The notes beneath the pieces are model-generated. The model ran no database searches. It saw only the letters and a program-made list of their open reading frames with translations, and was not told the origin of the DNA. A DNA stretch of 64,000 nt. Origin: Acidobacteria bacterium OLB17. GTDB taxonomy: Bacteria; Acidobacteriota; Blastocatellia; Pyrinomonadales; Pyrinomonadaceae. Position 1 is the first letter of the stretch. Each line of letters begins with the position of its first letter. A program made the position numbers and the translations under genes. The stretch covers positions 62,001 through 126,000 of the forward strand of contig LLEU01000039.1 in NCBI GenBank assembly GCA_001567505.1. The letters run 5' to 3'. Positions 1-23,044 of the stretch are shown here, in pieces.

Positions 1-697
1 TTGCCGCAAGGAGCGAGAACGTCGAGAGATAGATCACGTAGCTCGCATGTATCGGGGTCTTTACGCCGGGAAACGTCGTGACCGGGATCTCGGCGATCTT
101 GCCCTTCGCTGTCGAGACGATGTACGGGTTGAGCGGTTTGAAACCATCCGAGAACTTGCCGAAGAGCTGTTTCCTTTTTTCACGTTCTTCGTCCGACATC
201 TTCGGTGCCGTAAAAAAGTAGTACGCACGCGCAAGCGGTGCGATGTAGGTCGGGAATGTTGAGCAGTCGAGGTCATAGCCGCGTTCGGCGAGTGTTTCGA
301 GGACGAGCGGACTCAAGCTGAAACCCGGCCCGCGAAACGCTTTCGGGCGGCGGCCCGTCGCTTCCTCGATCGCGGCTTCCGAACGTTCGAATTCCTCGAT
401 CAGTTCCGCTTTCGAGTAAAGGTGCAGCCACGGTTCATGATGAAAACTGTGATTCCCGATCTCGTGTCCCGCGTCGGCGATCGAGCGGAGTGCCTCGCGG
501 TTCTTTTCAAGAGCGGCGTCCTGCCCGACGATAAAAAACGTGATCTTCTGATCGTGTTTTTCAAGGAACGAAAGGGCGGCCGGCACAACGCGGTCGAGAT
601 ACGAAGGGAAACTTTCCCAGCCCGCGTCGCCGTGCGTTTTCATATACGACCACTGATTGTCGAGGTCGAGCGAGAGGCTCGCGATCCGGTCTTTCAT
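1..697 (-). CDS. Polysaccharide deacetylase (NodB family), 3' end cut by window edge
   Basis: Reading the minus strand from the ATG at 697 gives an open frame of 232 residues to the window edge, with the C-terminus missing. It shows the NodB-fold motifs: SLDLDN near residue 10 (aspartates for catalysis and metal), ITFFIVGQD, then GHEIGNHSFHH, which holds the H-x3-H metal pair, and RGPGFSLSP. Such enzymes remove N- or O-acetyl groups from cell-surface or secreted polysaccharide. Its ATG overlaps the TGA of the upstream oxidoreductase (ATGA), so it is translationally coupled to the sugar locus. Substrate cannot be told from the sequence. Confidence 0.85.
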   Translation of the reverse strand, partial: MKDRIASLSLDLDNQWSYMKTHGDAGWESFPSYLDRVVPAALSFLEKHDQKITFFIVGQDAALEKNREALRSIADAGHEIGNHSFHHEPWLHLYSKAELIEEFERSEAAIEEATGRRPKAFRGPGFSLSPLVLETLAERGYDLDCSTFPTYIAPLARAYYFFTAPKMSDEEREKRKQLFGKFSDGFKPLNPYIVSTAKGKIAEIPVTTFPGVKTPIHASYVIYLSTFSLLAA

Positions 698-2189
698 CGA
701 GCTTCCTCCGCTGTGGCAAGGGACTCGATCAATTCGCCTGCGAACCGCTTTGCAAGGGCGACGGTCTCGTTCACGTTCAGCGTTCCGTTCACGATGTGCG
801 TCGAATTTACGACATAAAGCCCATCGACCGAGGTCTCGATCGGCGAAGATCTTCCGAGTAATTCAGAACGGGCACGGGAAAGACCTTTCGCACACGCGAG
901 ATGCGAAAAGCCAGCACATCGCGACGCCTGAAACGCGGATACATCCGCTCAAGGCCTGCAAGAAAGCTCTCGCGGATCTCGTCGTCGGATGCATCAAAGA
1001 GTTTGTCGTCCGGATCGACGTATTTTGGAAGATAGACGAGCGAGTTGCCGCCGAACTCATGCTTGGAAACGAGTGCGGTCATCTCGATCACGCCCGTAAA
1101 CGGAGCGTCGTCCGTGATATTCGTCACGTAGAACTTTGAGAGTGACGAACGCATCAGGACGGACGCACAGACGATGCCCTGATATCTGATGTTCGCGAGG
1201 TCGAGATGCTCGCGGCCATCGAGCTGCGGTGTGATCTCGGCGGCCTTCGCCGACGGGCAGGTCAAGATAACGCGATCGAATTCTTCGGGCGGTGCGGCCG
1301 GCCGAATGTCGGATCGGCGGCGTCGCGGCGTCGGGTCAGGTTCTGTGATGAACGCGCCGGAAAATCCGGGAACGACAGCTACGGCGGAGTTGAAGGCAGC
1401 GTACTTTGTTCGATGCGAATTGTAACCAGCGGCGAGGTCGGCCTTTCGTCGTGCGTCAACGACCTTAACGGCGAATCTGCCCGAGGACTGCTTTTCAACG
1501 AGACGGACAGGCGAGTTCAGGCGAACTTCAACACCCTTTTCCGCGAGTACCTCGCCAAAACGTTCGAGCACGTGTGCATAGCCGCCGCGGACGTAGCCGA
1601 ACATCTCTTTCTTCAGGCCGGAGCGGCGCGCGGCATACATTCGTTGGATCGTCGCCCAGATGAACGCCGCGGACGTGTCCTTGTACGACGCGCCGAGTTT
1701 TGCGATCAAGAGAGGCCGCCAGATCTTGTTGAATGTCTTTTTGCCCGAGAGACGCGTGAGCCATTCTTCGGCCGTGATCTTTTCGAGCTCTTTCCAATCG
1801 GTGATACGCGATGCGCGAAAGATCGTAAGTCCGAGCCGCAGTTTCGAGATGAGGCCGAGCGGTGGGAACTTCAGGAATTCGATCGCGTTCGACATCGAGT
1901 GAAGCTCGCCATCCGAGAAGAAACCCGTCTTCGTCTCGACCCAGCGAAAGCTGTCCTCGAGGCCGAGCTCGCGGACCAGTCCGCGAGTGTGTTCGTCCGA
2001 GAGAAGCGTGACGTGATAGTGCCGATCCCAAGTGAAATCGCCGATCCGCCACGCAGATGCGAGGCCGCCGATCTCGCCGCCTGCTTCAAAGATCGTGACG
2101 CGATGTCCGGCCTCGGCCAGACGCAGTGCGACGGTCATACCGAGAAAGCCGGAGCCGACTATCGCTATTTTCCGGGAGCTGTTGTCCAA
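694..2189 (-). CDS. NAD(P)/FAD-dependent oxidoreductase (amine-oxidase/protoporphyrinogen-oxidase-like), frameshifted near its 3' end
   Basis: The protein begins with a Rossmann FAD-binding motif (IVGSGFLGMTVALRLAEAGH, then FEAGGEIGGLASAW). The start is probably TTG at 2189, preceded by a good AGGGA ribosome site; the next Met lies inside the FAD fold. As read, the frame ends at 807 with an unnatural tail after NYSEDL. Adding one C/G near 845 restores the family-typical end (ETSVDGLYVVNSTHIVNGT, then NVNETVALAKRF), stopping at 694 in an ATGA overlap with the deacetylase gene. Repaired length is 498 residues. This family is common next to glycosyltransferases in polysaccharide loci; its substrate here is unknown. 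Confidence 0.8.
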
Positions 2190-12312: not shown

Positions 12313-13586
12313 CTATTTTGCAACCAGGATCCGAACATAATGAACATTGTTCGGAATTACCGTTCCGGTGAGACCGAGGGTGCCATCGCTCTCTTTAAAA
12401 GCGGGCCCGAGGAACGTGTGCTGTGGAGCGATCCTTACTAAAACGGAGCCGCTGCGACCGAACCTGAGATCGCGAAGGCCGTTCGGCCAAAGGCGGTAGA
12501 TCTCGCCCGGATTTCTGCCGTTTTGTGCTGCTTTATAGCCGGTCACGTAGATCTTGCCCGATGACTGAAGTGAGAGAAATCCAGGGAAACTTGCGTTTGG
12601 GAACGTGACCTCGCCCGATGCTCCGAATGACAGGTCAAGTGTGCCGCCAGGCGTGTACTTGTACAACTTTTTTCCGGAAAGGGTGAGTGTGCCGTTATCG
12701 GCCGCCGCCGCGATATCCATGACGGGGTAGCTGTCGAAGTTAACGGTGCTGAACGTGTCATCGCTGCGCCGCTTGCCAAATATTTCTTTAGAATGGACTT
12801 TTCAATGAGATCTGTTCCGTTCGCCGCTCGTACGCGGGCGTAGAAAGATGCCGCGATCTTGCCGTTCGCAAAGGTGCTGATATTAGCCATGGATGCGGCA
12901 TTCGCCGTAGGTCCGGTACCCAAGGGCTCGCGACGGAAACCGTTGAAACCGAATGAAGGATCCAGATTGCCGTTTGGAAGAAACTTGATAAGCAATCCGT
13001 TAGCATCCTTATTGATATGATTCGTACTTAGGCCCGTTATCGCTGCGGCAAGGATGCCGCCATCAGGCGACAATGCGATCTCGAACAGATGTTCGTCGGA
13101 GAACCGTCCGGCTTCGATCTGAAGATCGTGAAAAACGAATCCGTTCGTTCCGAAGGTAGTGTCCAATGAGCCGTCCGCGTTAAGCCTTGCCAGCAGCAGG
13201 TCGGTCGGTTGCTCGGGCACCATAAAATTCGTTTCGCCCGCAAGCAGAAACTTCCCGTCCGAAAGCTCAACAACATCCTTTGCAATGCAATGCGGGCACT
13301 CGATCGACACGAAACCGCCTGCACCGAATGTGGTATCAGGCACTCCGTCTGGACGAAACTTTACTACATGGATATTTGGTTCTTGTTGACCGAGGAAAAT
13401 GATAGACCGATCTTCAAGCTGCCTTACGCGGCTTGGATATGTCGCACCGCCGCTAATGGTCGTGTATCCGACCCCATTTAACGTCGTGTCGAGCGCGCCG
13501 ACGCGGTTGTAGAGCAACTGCGCGTCTGCATTTTGAAACAGTCCAAGAGCAAAGAGGAATATTAGAGGAATAATGGTGAAGCGCAT
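12313..13586 (-). CDS. Secreted delta-60 repeat protein, broken by one frameshift
   Basis: The signal peptide ends NADAQ near residue 23. Repeats of the delta-60 type follow, each with an L-N/P-x-G-x-L-D-x-(T/S)-F-G core: FRPDGVPDTTFGAGG, LNADGSLDTTFGTNG, FLPNGNLDPSFGFNG and, past the break, YTPGGTLDLSFGASG. The frame breaks between about 12770 and 12800. Restoring one base joins it to KRRSDDTFSTVNFD and continues to 12313, giving 424 residues. Delta-60 repeats are predicted beta-propeller-like and extracellular; no enzyme role is known. It stands alone and its stop faces the M14 gene. Confidence 0.78.
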
Positions 13587-13755
13587 GGCGTGTAAAGTGT
13601 CAGGAGAGGGCGACCGCTCGGCCGCGACATCCTATTATATTATAAACGCGCGATGTGCGGCTTTTTCTTTTTTCGGGTTCGCGATGGGACCACTTAGAAA
13701 TACGGAACTTCGAAGTCTGGATGCGAACCTGCGTTTTGGGCTATCATTGAGGTTG
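13587..13755. promoter_or_regulatory. Divergent promoter region between delta-60 and SpoIID genes
   Basis: 169 nt between two divergent starts. An AT-rich core at 13633-13646 (tattatattataaa) supplies TATAAT-like -10 sequences on the minus strand and TATTAT/TATAAA on the plus strand. No clear -35 boxes are seen. Confidence 0.35.
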
Positions 13756-16077
13756 ATGTTCTTCAAGGCCTTCAGTATTTTCGCAGCAACAGTTTTTGTT
13801 TTTTCGGGCACGGCATCAGCAGATCCGATCCTTTTCCGCCTGCCCGCGGAGCCGTTGATACGCATCGGCCTTGCAACGAACGCCTCGCAAGTTTCGATCA
13901 CGACGAGCGATCCGTCACTTGTCGCATTCAGCCCGGACGAACCGAGCCGCATGCTTGCCTCCAACCGCGTTTCGATATCCGCACGTGCATATAACCCGCC
14001 GGAGATCGAGCAGTTCCGCATCGAATTTCAGAATTTGCCGTCGCAGGTCGATGCGAACTCGCTCGCGGACGACGTTCGGGCGGCAGTCGGCGAATCTGCG
14101 ATCGCAAGCATTGATGTCGAAAAGAACACTTGGCGCGTTTGGGTCGGCGGCATCAAGGCGACCGAAGAAGAAGCTCTCGAACTCAAACAGCGGCTCGCCG
14201 ACAAGGACCTTGATGATGCGGTCGTCGTCGTTGAAAAGAAACAGGTGGTCTCGCCCGACGCGATCGCACTCACGCGGCAGGTTCGCGATGCAAAGAAGAG
14301 CGAAGTTCGGAGCCTCGTGCGGACGACAGGTTCCGCAAAGCTCGCTCCGGGCGAATCGATCGATCCGAATCTTCGCGAAGTGATCGTAAGCGGTTCGTCG
14401 GAAGAATCTAAATTCTCCTCGCTCAAGACCGTCGCCTTCGGGTCTCTTAATGAACGCTCGACGCCCGTTCGCCTGAACGGCAAGGCATATCGCGGGAAGA
14501 TCGAGGTCTTTGTGAATGCGTCCGGAAGGCTCTCGGTCGTGAACGTCGTCCCGCTCGAAGATTATCTCCTCGGCGTTGTCCCGAGCGAGCTTTCGCTCCC
14601 GCAGCTCGAAGCTCAAAAGGCGCAAGCCGTCGCCGCCCGCACGTACGCGATAGCGAATATCGGCGGCTACGGCACGAAAGGCTTCGATATGGTTCCGACC
14701 GTCTATTCCCAGGTTTACAAAGGCGTTTCGATCGAAACGGCGATGGGTACGCGGGCCGTTCGCGAGACGCGCGGCATGGTCGCAACATACAAAGGCGAGC
14801 CGATAATGGCGTATTTCACTTCCACCTGCGGCGGCCGAACAGAGGACGGCGTGAACATCTTCGGTAAGGACGAGCCGTATCTGAAGGGTGTGGAATGCTC
14901 GCTCGAGGGCAGGCGGCATTTCGATCCGTTCACGATCCGCACGTCTCGCACGCCGGCAAAACTTCGCGATGGCAGCCACCTCGAACTCACACGCCTGATG
15001 TCGCGTCTTGCAGCGAACGGTGCATATCTCTCGGCCGCCGAGATGACCGACGACTGGTTCGATTCCGCGCCGAACGCAACCGAGATGGCGAATTGGCTGG
15101 GGCAGATCGCGTCGAAGCTCGGCAAGCCGCTACCGAGCGTGTCGAACACTACGGCCCGGCCGCTCGAGGCCGCCGCCGTCCTAGCAAAGTTGTTCTACGA
15201 ACCGCGAGCCAACGACACGCTGCTGTCGAATTCCGATGTTCTCTACCAGCTTTCGTTCGATGATGCCGCGGACGTACCCGCAGCGATGCGTCCCGACCTT
15301 GCGGCATTGCTTCGCGACGGATATTTTCGGCTTCGCCCGGACCTTACGCTCAAACCGAATATGCCGTTTACGCGGGCGGAATTCCTCTCGCTGATCGGGC
15401 AGATCTACGCGAAGAAAAAATGGCTTCCCGATCTTCAGAAAGCGACGGCGAAGCCAGCGGCGGATGGCAAGATCTCGATCGGTTCGGGTAGAAGTGCGCG
15501 AAGCCTTACCGTGCGGCCGGACGTTTTTCTCTTCAGGCAGTTCGGCGAGACGCTCTACCCCGTGCGTGAGGTTGCGCTTGTCGGCGGCGAGGACATTGCG
15601 TTCCAAACCGACGCGACGGGCGCCGTAGCTTATCTTGAGGTTCAGCCGACCTCGTCGCCGACCGCCGCTGAGAATATGTCGCCGTTCACTAATTGGAACA
15701 AGACGGTCTCCGCATCGGCCCTCCAATCCCGCCTTTCGCGTTATGTTCGAGGTATCGGAACGCTATATGACGTGAACGTGAAAAAGGTAGGTTATTCGCG
15801 ACGCCCGATCGAGATCGAGATCGTCGGATCCAACGGCATCAAGACCCTCTCGGGCGGCAAGATCCGCTCGGCCCTTCGCCTCCCGGAACAGCTTTTTGTG
15901 ATGAATAAACGCTACAATGGCAACACTGTCGCGTCATACACGTTCACGGGACGCGGCTGGGGACACGGCGTCGGAATGTGCCAATACGGAGCCTACGGAA
16001 TGGCAAAAATGGGCGTGAAATACGACGAGATCATCAAGCATTACTACACGGGCGTCGATCTGACGAAAGCATACTAA
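13756..16077 (+). CDS. Exported SpoIID/LytB-domain protein (amidase-enhancer-like)
   Basis: 773 residues from ATG 13756 with GAGG just upstream; a longer frame from 13573 lacks support. The signal peptide ends TASA near residue 25. The SpoIID domain runs about residues 230-430: VNVVPLEDYLLGVVPSE, KAQAVAARTYAIAN and YFTSTCGGRTEDG, all hallmarks of this peptidoglycan lytic-transglycosylase family. A middle part with an SLH-like segment (TRAEFLSLIGQIYA) follows. The C-terminus has the second family signature GRGWGHGVGMCQYGAYGMA. In spore formers SpoIID cleaves denuded glycan; in Gram-negative bacteria the homologues are thought to remodel the wall. It is followed 4 nt later by the HinP1I-like gene. 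Confidence 0.85.
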   Translation: MFFKAFSIFAATVFVFSGTASADPILFRLPAEPLIRIGLATNASQVSITTSDPSLVAFSPDEPSRMLASNRVSISARAYNPPEIEQFRIEFQNLPSQVDANSLADDVRAAVGESAIASIDVEKNTWRVWVGGIKATEEEALELKQRLADKDLDDAVVVVEKKQVVSPDAIALTRQVRDAKKSEVRSLVRTTGSAKLAPGESIDPNLREVIVSGSSEESKFSSLKTVAFGSLNERSTPVRLNGKAYRGKIEVFVNASGRLSVVNVVPLEDYLLGVVPSELSLPQLEAQKAQAVAARTYAIANIGGYGTKGFDMVPTVYSQVYKGVSIETAMGTRAVRETRGMVATYKGEPIMAYFTSTCGGRTEDGVNIFGKDEPYLKGVECSLEGRRHFDPFTIRTSRTPAKLRDGSHLELTRLMSRLAANGAYLSAAEMTDDWFDSAPNATEMANWLGQIASKLGKPLPSVSNTTARPLEAAAVLAKLFYEPRANDTLLSNSDVLYQLSFDDAADVPAAMRPDLAALLRDGYFRLRPDLTLKPNMPFTRAEFLSLIGQIYAKKKWLPDLQKATAKPAADGKISIGSGRSARSLTVRPDVFLFRQFGETLYPVREVALVGGEDIAFQTDATGAVAYLEVQPTSSPTAAENMSPFTNWNKTVSASALQSRLSRYVRGIGTLYDVNVKKVGYSRRPIEIEIVGSNGIKTLSGGKIRSALRLPEQLFVMNKRYNGNTVASYTFTGRGWGHGVGMCQYGAYGMAKMGVKYDEIIKHYYTGVDLTKAY

Positions 16078-16081
16078 TTAA

Positions 16082-16899
16082 ATGTCTCTCTCGCGTTTTA
16101 TTTCTCGGCGGATCGCGATCGCCTTTATCGTCCTTGCATCCGTCACTGCCGCCTTTGGGCAGTCGTCGTCGGCAAAACTCGGATCGGACACGGCGAAAGG
16201 CGGATTTAGGAATGAGGACGCGATCCGCGACAAATTCAACGCGTTCCGAACGGACGACGATGCGAAAGCGTGGCTGCGGGCGATGGGCTATGATCCGGCA
16301 GCGATCGTATCACTCGCGGCCTCGAAACCTCATGGCGAAAAGGCCGATGTCGAGATCGTCATCGAGACGGCAAAGGGCAAGACGCGCGAAGGCATCTCGA
16401 TAAAGCTCGTCTCCGGCCAACGCGGATTCAATCAGATCGACAAACGCAGGCTCTCCCATTATCGCGAGATGTGGAAAATGCCGGACGAGGTCGTTGCCGC
16501 TCTAAAGCTCTTCGTCGGTGAGACGCCTCCAACGAAGCCGGGACGCTCGAAAGACAGGATGTTCCTGAATGAGATCGATCCGCAGGCACGCGACGCCGTC
16601 ATTAAGTTCTTTTCGGAGAACAAAGAGCGGATCGTCTCCGACCTTTTTGCCGGAGACGGCGACCACGATGCCGGTTGGATCATGGTCGCGTTCAAACCGT
16701 CCGAAAAACGGAGTGGATCATTCGCACTGCGGCAAAGGCGGTCGAATTCTACGGCGACGGCGACGTGAAACTCACGCGCTCCGGCAACCTGAAGATCGGC
16801 CGGATCACAATGCAGCGAAAGGGCGGCGACGCGGGCCGCGAATCCGCAAAGATGCTGCAATTCAAGATCGATCCAGTAGAGCTCTTTAACGCAAAATGA
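16082..16899 (+). CDS. HinP1I-like type II restriction endonuclease with an N-terminal signal peptide (one frameshift)
   Basis: Repaired length is 272 residues. The frame as read ends at 16768; adding one A to the A run at 16704-16708 continues to 16899. From residue about 31 onward it aligns, from memory, along the whole of R.HinP1I (cuts G^CGC): LGSDTAKGGFRNE, IKLVSGQRGFNQIDK, YREMWK and the C-terminal QRKGGDAGRESAKMLQFK. The catalytic Asp and Lys positions are kept (ADVEI and SIK), but the middle Gln is Ser. The first 27 residues form a Sec-type signal peptide (RRIAIAFIVLASVTAAFGQ). No in-frame ATG, GTG or TTG start lies between it and the enzyme domain. No methyltransferase is nearby. Confidence 0.8.
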
Positions 16900-16979
16900 G
16901 ATTCTCACAAAGGCAGATCATCGGCGCTGTGATCATCCTCTTCGTCATTCTGATATTGTCTTTGATACGGATGATGTGA
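16896..16979 (+). CDS. 27-residue single-span membrane peptide coupled to the HinP1I-like gene
   Basis: The ATG at 16896 overlaps the endonuclease TGA (ATGA). The frame encodes MRFSQRQ, then a hydrophobic span of about 17 residues rich in Ile, Leu and Val, ending LIRMM. It has a positively charged head and tail. The four-base overlap and the strongly hydrophobic content suggest a real small gene, although chance cannot be excluded. Its role is unknown; accessory, anchoring or immunity function for the endonuclease is speculation. Confidence 0.5.
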   Translation: MRFSQRQIIGAVIILFVILILSLIRMM

Positions 16980-17020
16980 CGCACGTTCGGGCGAGGTCGA
17001 TGAGAGAGCAGGAACGCAAA

Positions 17021-17965
17021 ATGCCGATATTTGCCGTCTGCGGCCCGACCGCGTCCGGGAAGACGGCTCTCGCCGTTCACCTTGCGGGGCAGCTCGGCGC
17101 GGAGATCGTGAATTTCGACTCCGTGCAGATCTACCGAGGCATCGAGATCGCGACCGCAAAGCCGACGGCCGCCGAGATGCGCGGCATCCCGCATCATCTG
17201 ATCGGATATGTCGATCCGAATATCGACTATACGGCCGCAGATTGGGCCGAAGATGCGAAAGCGAAGATCAGCGAGATCGAATCACGCGGCAAGCGCGTCA
17301 TCCTCGTCGGCGGCACGGGTTTCTATCTGCGAACTCTCTGCCAGCCTCTTTTTGAAAGCCCGAAGACCGACCCGCAGCTTCGCGAAAAGTATCGCAGGCT
17401 CCACAGCGAACGCGGGGCCGAACACCTTCACGCTCTTCTTGCCGAAGCCGATCCGCAGGCCGCGGCGAACCTTCCCGTCCGCGACTATGTCCGCGTGATA
17501 CGTGCTCTTGAGGTCATCGAACAGACGGGCAAGAAGATCTCCGCCTTGCAGCCCGAGCGGCCCGCACCGCCCGAGCTTGCCCGCCGCATTCGCCGCATCG
17601 TCCTTTCACCGCCGCGAGACGAGCTTTACGAGAAGATAAACGCCCGAACCGCAGCCCATTTTTCGGCCGGACTCGTCGAGGAGGTCGAAAGCCTTCTTGC
17701 CGCCGGAGTTCGCGACAACGGCAATGCTATGGGAGCTCACGCTTACCGGCGGGTCTGCGAATTCCTTCGCGGAGAGCGGACGTATGAGAGCGCCATCGAG
17801 CGTTCGCAGCAGGATGTGCGAAATTATGCGAAACGTCAGCTCACTTGGTTTCGTAAAGAGAAAGAGGCCGTTTGGTTCGAAGGCTTTGGCACGGAGGCGC
17901 TTTTGGCTGAAAAAGTGGTCGAATTCTGTGAAAATTCGACATTAAATGAGCTAATTCAAATATAA
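17021..17965 (+). CDS. miaA: tRNA dimethylallyltransferase
   Basis: 314 residues from ATG 17021 (CAGGAA six nt upstream); a GTG at 16976 would add 15 residues not typical of the family. The P-loop is GPTASGKTALAVHLA. DSVQIYRGIEIATAKP and HHLIGYVDPNIDYTAADW are diagnostic. MiaA adds a dimethylallyl group to A37 of tRNAs reading UNN codons. The gene precedes hfq, as in many bacteria. Confidence 0.95.
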   Translation: MPIFAVCGPTASGKTALAVHLAGQLGAEIVNFDSVQIYRGIEIATAKPTAAEMRGIPHHLIGYVDPNIDYTAADWAEDAKAKISEIESRGKRVILVGGTGFYLRTLCQPLFESPKTDPQLREKYRRLHSERGAEHLHALLAEADPQAAANLPVRDYVRVIRALEVIEQTGKKISALQPERPAPPELARRIRRIVLSPPRDELYEKINARTAAHFSAGLVEEVESLLAAGVRDNGNAMGAHAYRRVCEFLRGERTYESAIERSQQDVRNYAKRQLTWFRKEKEAVWFEGFGTEALLAEKVVEFCENSTLNELIQI

Positions 17966-18036: not shown

Positions 18037-18291
18037 ATGGAGAAGCAGGCTGCCCAGAATATCCAGGATGCGTTCCTGAATTCGGCAAGGCGAGAGAGGT
18101 TGAATGTCGTTGTACATTTGCTGCAAGGGGCAACTTTGACCGGCCGTATAAAAAGTTTTGATAAGTTCTCCCTTCTCCTTGATGTTGGCGGCCCCGACGT
18201 GCTTGTTTTCAAGCACGCGATCTCGTCCATAACACAGGAGCGTCGGCCTGCCCCGCAAACGCCGGCCCCGGCTGAACAGAACCAGGCTTGA
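18037..18291 (+). CDS. hfq: RNA chaperone Hfq
   Basis: 84 residues, with the Sm fold across 5-70: QNIQDAFLNSARRERLNV (Sm1), TGRIKSFDKFSLLLD, and the Sm2 motif VFKHAISSI (the usual form is YKHAIST). A proline/alanine-rich tail of about 15 residues follows. Hfq forms a hexameric ring that pairs small RNAs with mRNAs. A strong GGAGAGG site lies before the ATG. It follows miaA and overlaps the tmk start. Confidence 0.95.
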   Translation: MEKQAAQNIQDAFLNSARRERLNVVVHLLQGATLTGRIKSFDKFSLLLDVGGPDVLVFKHAISSITQERRPAPQTPAPAEQNQA

Positions 18292-18917
18292 AAGGCAGTT
18301 TTATTACCTTTGAAGGGATCGACGGCAGCGGCAAGACGACCCAGCTCGAAAGGCTTGCCGAAAGCCTCCGGCACTCCGGCCGGGACGTTCTCATTACGTG
18401 CGAACCCGGCGGGACGCCGCTCGGCCGCGAGCTCCGCAAGGCTTTCCTCGAAACAAAGCAGGACGTTGAACCTCTCGCCGAACTCCTGCTTTTTGCGGCC
18501 GACCGCGCGCAGCACGTTCAGCATCTGATCCGCCCGGCACTGGCCGAGGGCAAGATCGTAATCTCAGATCGGTATGCCGACGCGACCACCGCGTATCAAG
18601 GGGCGGGACGCGGCTTCGACCTCAAGTTGATCGAGAACGTGACCGCGATCGCGACCGGCGGATTAAAGCCCGATCTTACGCTCTTTTTTGATATCGAGCC
18701 GCAGGCCGCCGTCGATCGAATGGAGTTTCGTGCCGCGCACAAAAAGAATCGTATGGATCTCGAACCGCTGGAGTTCTACGAACGTGTCCGCGACGCTTAC
18801 CTGAGGATCGCCGCCGCCGAACCAGAACGCTTTCGTGTTATCGACGCGGGCCGCGGCATCGACGAGATCGCCGCAGAGACGCTCGAAGCAGTAACGGAGA
18901 TGTTAGATCGTGTTTAG
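18288..18917 (+). CDS. tmk: Thymidylate kinase
   Basis: 209 residues starting at a TTG whose bases overlap the hfq TGA (TTGA). No ATG is available before the P-loop FEGIDGSGKTTQLE. The DRY signature (SDRYADATTAYQGAGRG) and the LID region with RMDLEPLEFYERV are present. The enzyme phosphorylates dTMP to dTDP in DNA precursor synthesis. Its 3' end overlaps holB by 8 nt, the usual tmk-holB pairing. Confidence 0.94.
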   Translation: MKGSFITFEGIDGSGKTTQLERLAESLRHSGRDVLITCEPGGTPLGRELRKAFLETKQDVEPLAELLLFAADRAQHVQHLIRPALAEGKIVISDRYADATTAYQGAGRGFDLKLIENVTAIATGGLKPDLTLFFDIEPQAAVDRMEFRAAHKKNRMDLEPLEFYERVRDAYLRIAAAEPERFRVIDAGRGIDEIAAETLEAVTEMLDRV

Positions 18918-19950
18918 CCGCATTATCGGGAATGAAGCCGCAAAGATCGGGCTCGGCCGCCTGATCCATCAACGGCGGCTGCCGGGTTCGCTCCTTTTTT
19001 CGGGACCGGAGGGCGTAGGCAAAAAGCAGTTCGCGATAGAGACGGCCCGTGCTCTCGCATGCACAGAGCCGAACAACGATGAGGCCTGCGGAGCGTGTTC
19101 GAGCTGCGTGCGGATGGCCGCACTTCCGCCGCCGTCCTCGAATGCCGACGACTATAAACGCGTGTTCTTCACGCAGCATCCCGACCTCGGTTTCGTCCTC
19201 CCGAACAAACGCATCCTTCGTGTCGATGCGATCCGCGACCTCGAACGCGAGGTGAATTTCAAACCATACGAGGCCGCGGCGCGCACGTTCATAATCGACG
19301 ATGCCGATCTGATGAACGATGCGGCAGCGAACGCTCTCCTAAAATCGCTTGAAGAGCCGCCCGAGACCTCGCACATCATACTGATCACGTCGCGGCCGGA
19401 CGTTCTTCTTCCGACGATCCGTTCGCGTTGCCAAGTGGTGCATTTTGCACCTGTCGAACGAAAACTGATCGAGGAATACCTGATCGAGGATCGCGCATTC
19501 TCGCACGATGAAGCGAGGCTTGCCGCGGGCGTCGCTCACGGGAGCATCGGACGCGCCGTCGGGATCGATGTTGCGAACTATCGAAATATGCGGGATCGTG
19601 CGGTCCGCGTGCTTAGGGCAGCGGCCGTTGAATCCGACACGGCCGCATTGATGCGCATCTCCGAAGAGATCAATGACGCAAAGAATAAGGACAATTTCGA
19701 GGCCGAGCTCGATACTCTCGAAGCCGTCGTTCGCGACGTCTGGAGGCTTGCGTGCGGCATCGATCCCGCAAAACTGCTCGACCCGGAAATGGCCGCCGAG
19801 TATCAGAAGATCGCCGAATTTGCCGAGCCTGCCCAGCTTGCCGCCAACCTCGGCGAGATCGAGATGCTTCGACGTACGCTTGCCGTGAACATCAATCGGA
19901 AGGTCGCAACGGACGCGATGTTTTTGACAATGGCCGCGGGAAAGCGGTAA
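18910..19950 (+). CDS. holB: DNA polymerase III delta-prime subunit (clamp loader)
   Basis: 346 residues from GTG 18910, inside the end of tmk. AAA+ clamp-loader features are visible: GPEGVGKKQFAIE (P-loop-like), a four-cysteine zinc module around CGACSSC (about 57-63), FIIDDADLMNDAAANALLK (Walker B/sensor) and TIRSRCQVVHF, the SRC motif used for inter-subunit contact. It is part of the complex that loads the beta clamp. The order hfq-tmk-holB suggests one transcript. Confidence 0.92.
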   Translation: MFSRIIGNEAAKIGLGRLIHQRRLPGSLLFSGPEGVGKKQFAIETARALACTEPNNDEACGACSSCVRMAALPPPSSNADDYKRVFFTQHPDLGFVLPNKRILRVDAIRDLEREVNFKPYEAAARTFIIDDADLMNDAAANALLKSLEEPPETSHIILITSRPDVLLPTIRSRCQVVHFAPVERKLIEEYLIEDRAFSHDEARLAAGVAHGSIGRAVGIDVANYRNMRDRAVRVLRAAAVESDTAALMRISEEINDAKNKDNFEAELDTLEAVVRDVWRLACGIDPAKLLDPEMAAEYQKIAEFAEPAQLAANLGEIEMLRRTLAVNINRKVATDAMFLTMAAGKR

Positions 19951-21618: not shown

Positions 21619-23044
21619 CTACTTCGCGAAGAGCCTTGAAACGTCGAAGAAAATAGTTGTCACCATCAAAAGCAGCACGATACCGAGGCCCGTAAGCTGG
21701 ATCCGTTCGCGTGCGACAAGCGAAAGCGTCTTGCCGAACCAGGACAGGACCTTCTCGATGCCGAGCACCATGATCTGGCCGCCGTCGAGCATCGGGATCG
21801 GCAGCAAATTCATAACGCCGAGCGTCAAACTGATCGCCATCAGGAGCGGCAAAAGACCTAAGAAGCCGCCTGCGAAGACGGTCTTGACGATCATCTGTCC
21901 GATACCGATCGGGCCGGACAGTGTGTCGCGCGCAGAGCGTTCGCCGGTGCTGACCTGGCCGAGTGCAACGCCCGTAAGCCGCAGTATCCGCAGGTTCTGG
22001 TCGAGTGCGAATGCCGCAGCACCGCCAAGCCCGACCGCCTCGCGTTTTGCGAGAAGGCTCGGGTCGAAGCCGATGCCGATCAGGAATCTGTCACCTCGTT
22101 GCTCGGCGTGGGTCGTGACCGTCAACTGCTGCCCCTTTCGGTCGATCGAGAGCGTTAGCGGCTGGCCCTTTGAGTCCGTGACGACGGACTGCATCTTGCG
22201 AACATTCGTAATGTTGATACCGTTGACCGCCTTGATCCAATCGCCGACCTGTACGCCGTCCTTTGCAGCCGGAAGCGACGTATCGAGGATGCCGACCACG
22301 ACTGGCTCAGTAGCCGCGTCGGCTTCCATATCGAGTACTCCCATGGACTGTCCGCTAATTGTAAGGTTCGACGGTGTGATCGAAAGATCGAGGCGTTTCC
22401 CGTCGCGTTCGACGCTGATCGGGACCGGCTTTTCGGCAAAGAGGAGTGCGTCGTCCTCGATCCGCGTCCAGGACGGATTCTCCGTTCCCTGAAAAGCGAC
22501 GATGCGGTCGCGGCCTGGATCCCGGCGTGTGCGGCGGCCCCGTCCGGCGTTACAAAGCCGACGAGCGGAGCGGGATTTACCGGAACACCGAGCCAAAGGG
22601 CGATGCCGAGCGGGATGGCAAGCGCGAGCACGAAATTCATAAAAGGCCCGCCGAGCATCACAAAGAATTTCTGCCAACGCGGCCGAAGTTCGTAAAGCTC
22701 GGTAGGCGGCACGACGTAACTCGCCGCCCCTTTTCCTTCCTCAGCCGCGCCGATGTTGCGCTGGTCCATGAAGGTTTCCAGGTCGCCGATTTTCCACCTT
22801 CCAGCGGGGCGGTCACATCGTCCCCGTAAAGTTTCACATAAGCCCCGAGCGGTATCGCCGAAACGCGATAGTCCGTGTGGCCGATCTTCACGCCGAAAAG
22901 CCTCGGTCCGAGGCCGAACAGCGAGTACGCCTCGACACGCATCCCGAAGAGCTTCGCGATGATAAAATGCCCGAACTCGTGGATATTGATCGCGACCCCG
23001 AGTACGAAAATGATCGCTAGAATAGCTATTAGAACGTCCAACAT
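21619..23044 (-). CDS. rseP: RseP-type site-2 zinc protease (M50), two frameshifts
   Basis: The N-terminal part has NIHEFGHFIIAKLFG (the HExxH zinc site in the first membrane span). The middle has FVMLGGPFMNFVLALAIPLG, followed by PDZ domains (VQVGDWIKAVNGI). The C-terminal part has LLPIPMLDGGQ, the family DG motif. These lie in three different frames. One A missing at about 22791 and one base missing at about 22510 restore a single 475-residue protein. RseP cuts membrane-bound anti-sigma factors and leftover signal peptides. The ATG overlaps the dxr stop (TGATG). Confidence 0.88.

What the first reader, a model, noticed from the sequence alone, without database searches (positions are those of the whole stretch)
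16082..16899. HinP1I-like restriction endonuclease with an export signal and no methyltransferase
From about residue 31 the protein matches, from memory, the whole length of R.HinP1I, including the GFNQIDK and QRKGGD..GRE..NMLQFK-type segments. The first 27 residues are a clear Sec signal peptide, and no in-frame start codon lies between it and the enzyme domain. An enzyme sent out of the cytoplasm would not need a protective methyltransferase, and none is seen. This could be a periplasmic or secreted DNA-cutting system acting on incoming or extracellular DNA, a use of this family I do not know of. The catalytic Asp and Lys are kept, but the Gln of the SD-x18-(Q/E)-x-K motif is Ser.
Basis: partly seen in the sequence, partly recalled or inferred. 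Interest (0 to 1): 0.88.

Follow-up and report, generated by a model that had tools for sequence, protein, structure and literature searches.

The report
Exported HinP1I-type restriction enzyme clade
A soil-and-water bacterial genus, and some Planctomycetes, carry a DNA-cutting restriction enzyme that has gained an export signal and lost its usual protective partner, so it probably cuts DNA outside the cell's interior; this clade was not found in the literature searched.

Summary
Window 16082-16899 encodes a Sec-type signal peptide followed by a complete R.HinP1I homologue, but in two reading frames: a one-base frameshift lies at the A-run 16704-16708. It is probably an assembly error, since the neighbouring rseP also carries two frameshifts while intact relatives show none.

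The gene is a core gene of its genus (34 of the first 37 genomes searched), fixed between spoIID and miaA, and also patchy in Planctomycetota (18 of 170 genomes of one order). All 40 intact homologues checked there have a signal peptide; they form one clade (support 100/100). Homologues without the signal group apart, and most sit beside a cytosine methyltransferase. The exported clade has none adjacent, and three carrier genomes have no cytosine-methyltransferase family at all. D62 and K83 are invariant, the enzyme domain is under strong purifying selection, and an AlphaFold model matches DNA-bound HinP1I (TM 0.91).

GCGC, the HinP1I site, is the most depleted of all tetranucleotides in this genus (obs/exp 0.44, against 1.04 in sister genera). 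In Planctomycetota, however, carriers and non-carriers do not differ.

Best reading: an exported GCGC endonuclease protected by compartment rather than methylation. Substrate and role are untested.

The parts
16082..16159 (+). Sec/SPase-I type signal peptide, residues 1-26 (MSLSRFISRRIAIAFIVLASVTAAFG|Q)
   Evidence: Direct reading. Simple signal-peptide call positive for the window and for 39 of 41 aligned homologues; the two failures are cytosolic L033 and L063, whose row began too late. Background rate 119 of 502 neighbouring genes.
16160..16708 (+). Enzyme domain, N-terminal three quarters (HinP1I residues 4 to ~184), in the signal-peptide frame; catalytic Asp (KAD), Ser-x-Lys (ISIKLVS) and GFNQIDK
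   Evidence: Pfam PF11463 1-144, PDB 1YNM 4-184, catalytic columns
16704..16708 (+). Site of the -1 frameshift (A5 run, ccgtccgaaaaacggagtgg); probably a sequence/assembly error, possibly a young pseudogene
   Evidence: Two frames abut here; absent in relatives
16705..16899 (+). Enzyme domain, C-terminal quarter (HinP1I 185-246: TEWIIR...QRKGGDAGRESAKMLQFK...) in the other frame, with its stop codon
   Evidence: Pfam PF11463 148-208, PDB 1YNM 185-246
13573..16077 (+). Conserved upstream neighbour: SpoIID-domain protein; the nuclease start codon is 5 bp after its end
   Evidence: PF08486; synteny cluster 1; gap
16976..17965 (+). Conserved downstream neighbour: miaA (IPP transferase), then hfq 18037-18291, tmk 18288-18917, holB-like 18910-19950
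   Evidence: Pfam; synteny clusters 2, 4, 5

Best explanation
The gene encodes a Sec-exported, monomeric HinP1I-type PD-(D/E)xK endonuclease (signal peptide plus a full-length enzyme). SHOWN: homology over the whole enzyme, conserved catalytic and recognition segments, a signal peptide throughout one clade, no linked methyltransferase, and one fixed locus in the genus. INFERRED: the preprotein is threaded unfolded through Sec, the signal is cleaved at AFG|Q, and the enzyme folds with Mg2+ in the periplasm or beyond. There it cuts double-stranded DNA at GCGC, such as DNA captured for uptake, released by neighbours, or otherwise outside the cytoplasm. The chromosome, which by extrapolation keeps about 12,000 GCGC sites, is spared because it is in another compartment, so no cognate methyltransferase is needed. 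The strong GCGC depletion of this genus suggests that its own DNA has still met a GCGC-cutting activity over long times: kin DNA during uptake, or some preprotein activity before export.
For: Homology over essentially all of HinP1I. AlphaFold model of the closest intact orthologue, pLDDT 91, matches DNA-bound HinP1I 2FKC with TM 0.91. D62 and K83 are conserved 50/50; the GFNQ-DK and QRKGGD-GR..LQFK segments are near invariant. Signal peptides in every member of the exported clade, which is monophyletic at 100/100. Cytosolic homologues pair with C5 methyltransferases. Genus-core gene at a fixed spoIID-miaA locus. dN/dS near 0.1 in the enzyme domain. No PF00145 in 16 of 41 genus genomes. Three carriers with neither PF00145 nor PF01555. 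GCGC obs/exp 0.44 in genus carriers against 1.04 in sister genera, the lowest of all 256 tetranucleotides, in all codon phases, without excess of deamination products. About 12,000 sites remain per genome by extrapolation.
Against: No experiment: cleavage, specificity and location are inferred. In Planctomycetota, GCGC depletion is the same with and without the gene (0.65 against 0.65, p=0.6), so the genus contrast is a single phylogenetic event and may be coincidental. A genus-core SPPY-type solitary methyltransferase of unknown specificity co-occurs in the genus. The window's own copy is frameshifted. The second catalytic residue (Gln) is Ser.
Confidence: 0.72

Rival explanations
1. It is an ordinary extracellular DNase in function: an exported enzyme recruited for scavenging phosphate or nucleotides or for remodelling extracellular DNA. 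Its GCGC specificity is only an inheritance and it has no role as a barrier.
For: Location by signal peptide; no defence-gene neighbours, housekeeping neighbours instead; no relative in phage or viral collections; no carrier effect on GCGC in Planctomycetota.
Against: A 4-bp-specific cutter is a poor general DNase. Recognition segments are kept under strong constraint. GCGC is specifically depleted in the genus.
Confidence: 0.3
2. It is a separated restriction-modification system: the genus-core SPPY-type methyltransferase (or another unlinked cytosine methyltransferase) protects GCGC, and the nuclease may act inside the cell before or without export.
For: The core methyltransferase is in nearly all genus genomes and absent from sister genera, the same taxonomic pattern as the nuclease. 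SPPY is typical of N4-cytosine enzymes (family knowledge). Unlinked R and M genes are documented (PMC3488263).
Against: All 18 Planctomycetota carriers lack it. Three carriers lack both cytosine-methyltransferase families. The three genus genomes without a detected nuclease keep the methyltransferase. A cytosolic enzyme would have no use for a conserved signal peptide.
Confidence: 0.14
3. The N-terminal segment is an uncleaved membrane anchor, so the nuclease is tethered to the periplasmic face of the inner membrane.
For: Basic residues before one hydrophobic helix would orient the enzyme outward (sequence).
Against: Small-x-small-Q type cleavage sites recur in nearly all members (AQ, GQ).
Confidence: 0.15
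4. The window copy is a young pseudogene: frameshift plus two changes at invariant sites.
For: Frameshift; Trp122->Arg and Asn263->Asp.
Against: The rseP gene of the same window carries two frameshifts, pointing to sequence errors. dN/dS of the window copy is the same as for intact copies. The second frame is intact to the normal stop.
Confidence: 0.25
5. The exported protein is a catalytically dead DNA-binding protein.
For: The Gln of the catalytic triad is Ser throughout the clade.
Against: Ser is also present in MTase-paired cytosolic homologues from Spiroplasma and from an Acidobacteriota of another family. Asp and Lys are invariant.
Confidence: 0.07

Closest known systems
R.HinP1I (Type IIP, G^CGC; PDB 1YNM, 2FKC; Pfam PF11463)
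   Same: Full-length homology at about 40% identity in the structural alignment, same fold (TM 0.91), catalytic Asp and Lys, and recognition segments.
   Different: Signal peptide added; no linked methyltransferase; core chromosomal gene; catalytic Gln replaced by Ser.
Solitary (orphan) restriction endonucleases (Ershova et al. 2012, PMC3488263)
   Same: Restriction-enzyme gene without a neighbouring methyltransferase.
   Different: That survey's text does not mention signal peptides or export. Here the lack of a partner is clade-wide and comes with an export signal.
Exported non-specific nucleases (Xds/Dns of Vibrio, ExeM of Shewanella, EndA)
   Same: Exported DNases acting on extracellular or incoming DNA (literature found).
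   Different: Unrelated folds and no sequence specificity (general knowledge); here a 4-bp-specific restriction-enzyme fold.

Membership tests
HinP1I endonuclease family (PF11463) | Sequence match over the whole domain above the curated cut-off | tested here: met
   110.9 and 83 bits in the two frames against a cut-off of 25; intact orthologues match 1-208
HinP1I endonuclease family (PF11463) | HinP1I/MspI fold | tested here: met
   AlphaFold model of the L037 orthologue against 2FKC: TM 0.91; MspI also found
HinP1I endonuclease family (PF11463) | Catalytic Asp62 and Lys83 | tested here: met
   50/50 sequences
HinP1I endonuclease family (PF11463) | Gln81 of SD-x18-(Q/E)-x-K (a HinP1I feature; family-wide requirement not established) | tested here: inconclusive
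   Ser in 50/50, but also Ser in MTase-paired cytosolic family members, so Gln is not a defining requirement of the family
HinP1I endonuclease family (PF11463) | Cleavage of GCGC | not testable with these tools
   Only indirect: conserved recognition segments and GCGC depletion in the genus
Type II restriction-modification system | Cognate methyltransferase protecting the host | tested here: not met
   None linked; no PF00145 in 16 of 41 genus genomes; neither PF00145 nor PF01555 in three carriers. An unlinked genus-core methyltransferase of unknown specificity remains possible in the genus
Type II restriction-modification system | Cytoplasmic enzyme | tested here: not met
   Signal peptides in all members of the exported clade; by sequence features only, no SignalP run
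Sec-secreted protein | N-region, hydrophobic core, SPase I site conserved across homologues | tested here: met

The most novel reading that the evidence does not exclude
A restriction barrier without modification: a sequence-specific endonuclease placed in the periplasm or outside the cell screens DNA before it enters. Self is spared by compartment and is marked by depletion of GCGC across the genus instead of by methylation, so kin DNA survives uptake better than foreign DNA.
Probability: 0.3. Interest if true: 0.92.

Novelty: new variant of a known kind. Interest (0 to 1): 0.76.

Why it matters
Type II restriction enzymes are understood as cytoplasmic enzymes that are lethal without their methyltransferase. 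A monophyletic, strongly conserved clade with an export signal and no partner would show that compartment can replace methylation as the self/non-self rule. It would explain some methyltransferase-less restriction-enzyme genes, and it gives a testable system: site-specific cutting of DNA outside the cytoplasm, site depletion in the host genome, and an effect on uptake of GCGC-containing DNA.

Tried and rejected
Mobile-element or phage origin: no hit in phage or viral collections, fixed synteny. Gln->Ser as a sign of inactivation: rejected, shared with MTase-paired relatives. GCGC depletion caused by 5-methylcytosine deamination: GTGC and GCAC are not in excess. GCGC depletion as a general consequence of carrying the gene: not supported in Planctomycetota, so I do not claim it beyond the genus. 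Genus-core SPPY methyltransferase as universal partner: rejected for Planctomycetota, open in the genus. Programmed frameshifting as explanation of the two frames: orthologues are uninterrupted, so not pursued. G005's apparent break is an N gap. Site depletion in genus genomes without the gene: only three incomplete genomes (0.51-0.64), too few to test. Literature searches for an exported restriction enzyme found nothing relevant in the held library. The HinP1I structure papers were not held, so residue roles rest on general knowledge. GANTC depletion as an explanation of low GATT/AATC counts: not confirmed.

Full report
CHECK OF THE OBSERVATION. ORF 16082-16768 (+, 228 aa) begins MSLSRFISRRIAIAFIVLASVTAAFGQ and then matches R.HinP1I: Pfam PF11463 E 7.9e-32, PDB 1YNM residues 4-184 E 3.8e-36. 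The remaining quarter of the enzyme (1YNM 185-246, E 7.7e-19) lies in another frame that ends at 16899. The two frames abut at the A5 run 16704-16708. There is one match region in the genome.

IS THE FRAMESHIFT REAL? Orthologues in the genus are uninterrupted. In this window the rseP orthologue (PF02163) is split over three frames, and at least two other conserved genes look shifted in a looser comparison, whereas the same comparison among three relatives finds no split genes. The window copy has the same dN/dS (about 0.1) as intact copies. I judge an assembly error more likely than a pseudogene, but two otherwise invariant residues also differ, so a young pseudogene remains possible.

A CLADE, NOT A SINGLE GENE. 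PF11463 was found in 34 of the first 37 genus genomes searched, and in no genome of other genera of the family examined. It is also present in Planctomycetota: 18 of 170 genomes in one order. In the genus the gene sits between a SpoIID protein and miaA-hfq-tmk-holB across many species, the mark of a long-resident core gene. Every member of this group has a basic n-region, a hydrophobic core and an AQ/GQ-type cleavage site directly before GS-x-TA. A simple caller was positive for 39 of 41 rows, failing only on the cytosolic L033 and on a row that began too late; the background rate was 119 of 502 neighbouring genes. SignalP was not available. The signal segment evolves fast while staying hydrophobic, as signal peptides do; the enzyme domain is under strong purifying selection.

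CONTRAST WITH THE CYTOSOLIC FORM. HinP1I, the Spiroplasma and Mycoplasmopsis homologues and two Acidobacteriota homologues of other families (L033, L035) lack the signal and group apart; the exported rows form a clade with 100/100 support. The Spiroplasma, Mycoplasmopsis and L033 genes each lie directly beside a C5 methyltransferase. L035 lies close to a contig end and its partner could not be judged. So gain of the signal and loss of the linked methyltransferase go together.

METHYLTRANSFERASES. GCGC has no adenine, so a protecting enzyme must be a cytosine methyltransferase (PF00145, or N4 enzymes in PF01555). PF00145 is absent in 16 of 41 genus genomes. PF01555 is present in all. A core ~266-aa SPPY-type enzyme is found in nearly every genus genome and not in sister genera, so within the genus an unlinked partner cannot be excluded. 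But none of the 18 Planctomycetota carriers has it, and three carriers (G427, G428, G431) have neither family; these are draft genomes of untested completeness.

ACTIVE SITE AND FOLD. D62 and K83 are kept in 50 of 50 sequences; Gln81 is Ser in 50 of 50, and also in the MTase-paired Spiroplasma and L033 enzymes (L033 is one of the 50). GFNQ-DK and QRKGGD-GR..LQFK are near invariant. The AlphaFold model of the closest intact orthologue (pLDDT 91) matches DNA-bound HinP1I with TM 0.91 and rmsd 2.2.

GCGC DEPLETION. In genus carriers GCGC is at 0.44 of expectation (27 genomes or loci, 0.28-0.70). It is at 1.04 in 11 genomes of sister genera and 1.10 in 12 genomes of other families, with no overlap; for 16 genus against 11 sister genomes p=1.6e-5, not corrected for phylogeny. 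It is the lowest of all 256 tetranucleotides and the largest difference from the sister genera; deamination products are not in excess; it holds in all codon phases under synonymous shuffling. Site avoidance is known to grow with the time an R-M system has been resident (PMC4687349). I then tried to break this. In the Planctomycetota order, carriers and non-carriers both have about 0.65 (p=0.6). So the association rests on one phylogenetic contrast and should be read as suggestive. By extrapolation from the window about 12,000 GCGC sites remain per genome, so an unprotected cytosolic enzyme would be lethal; export or methylation must protect.

MECHANISM. Most likely the preprotein is exported by Sec and cleaved, and the mature enzyme cuts duplex DNA at GCGC outside the cytoplasm. 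ComEC is present in 38 of 41 genus genomes, so screening of DNA during uptake is possible, but ComEC is widespread and this is not proof. General extracellular DNase duty is the main rival for the role.

NOVELTY. The library held no report of an exported Type II restriction enzyme, and the survey of solitary restriction enzymes does not mention export. Most subscription papers are not held, so absence from the literature is not established. I file the enzyme as a member of the HinP1I family, not as a Type II R-M system, since the defining methyltransferase and cytoplasmic location were tested and not met.

Noticed in passing
21622-23044 (-): The rseP orthologue (M50 protease with PDZ domains) is split over three frames in the window while intact in relatives, pointing to indel errors in this assembly.
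   Followed up: partly
697-2189 (-) and 12316-13655 (-): Two further conserved genes (amine oxidase-like; DUF5122 beta-propeller) also look frameshifted compared with relatives.
   Followed up: partly
L194, L197; G000:C13:8416-9213: A genus-core solitary methyltransferase with a TSPPYDDLR motif (about 266 aa), in nearly all genus genomes and no sister genus; specificity unknown.
   Followed up: partly
genus genomes, window included: GATT/AATC (0.54 of expectation) and CATG (0.47) are also unusually rare in this genus; the GANTC pattern did not explain the former.
   Followed up: partly
L104:9851-10717: A divergent HinP1I homologue without a signal peptide (Acidobacteriota, G281) overlaps a downstream ORF of no known Pfam family, cut by the contig end.
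   Followed up: no
Planctomycetota order of G426: GCGC is depleted to about 0.65 of expectation across the order whether or not the exported HinP1I homologue is present; cause unknown.
   Followed up: partly
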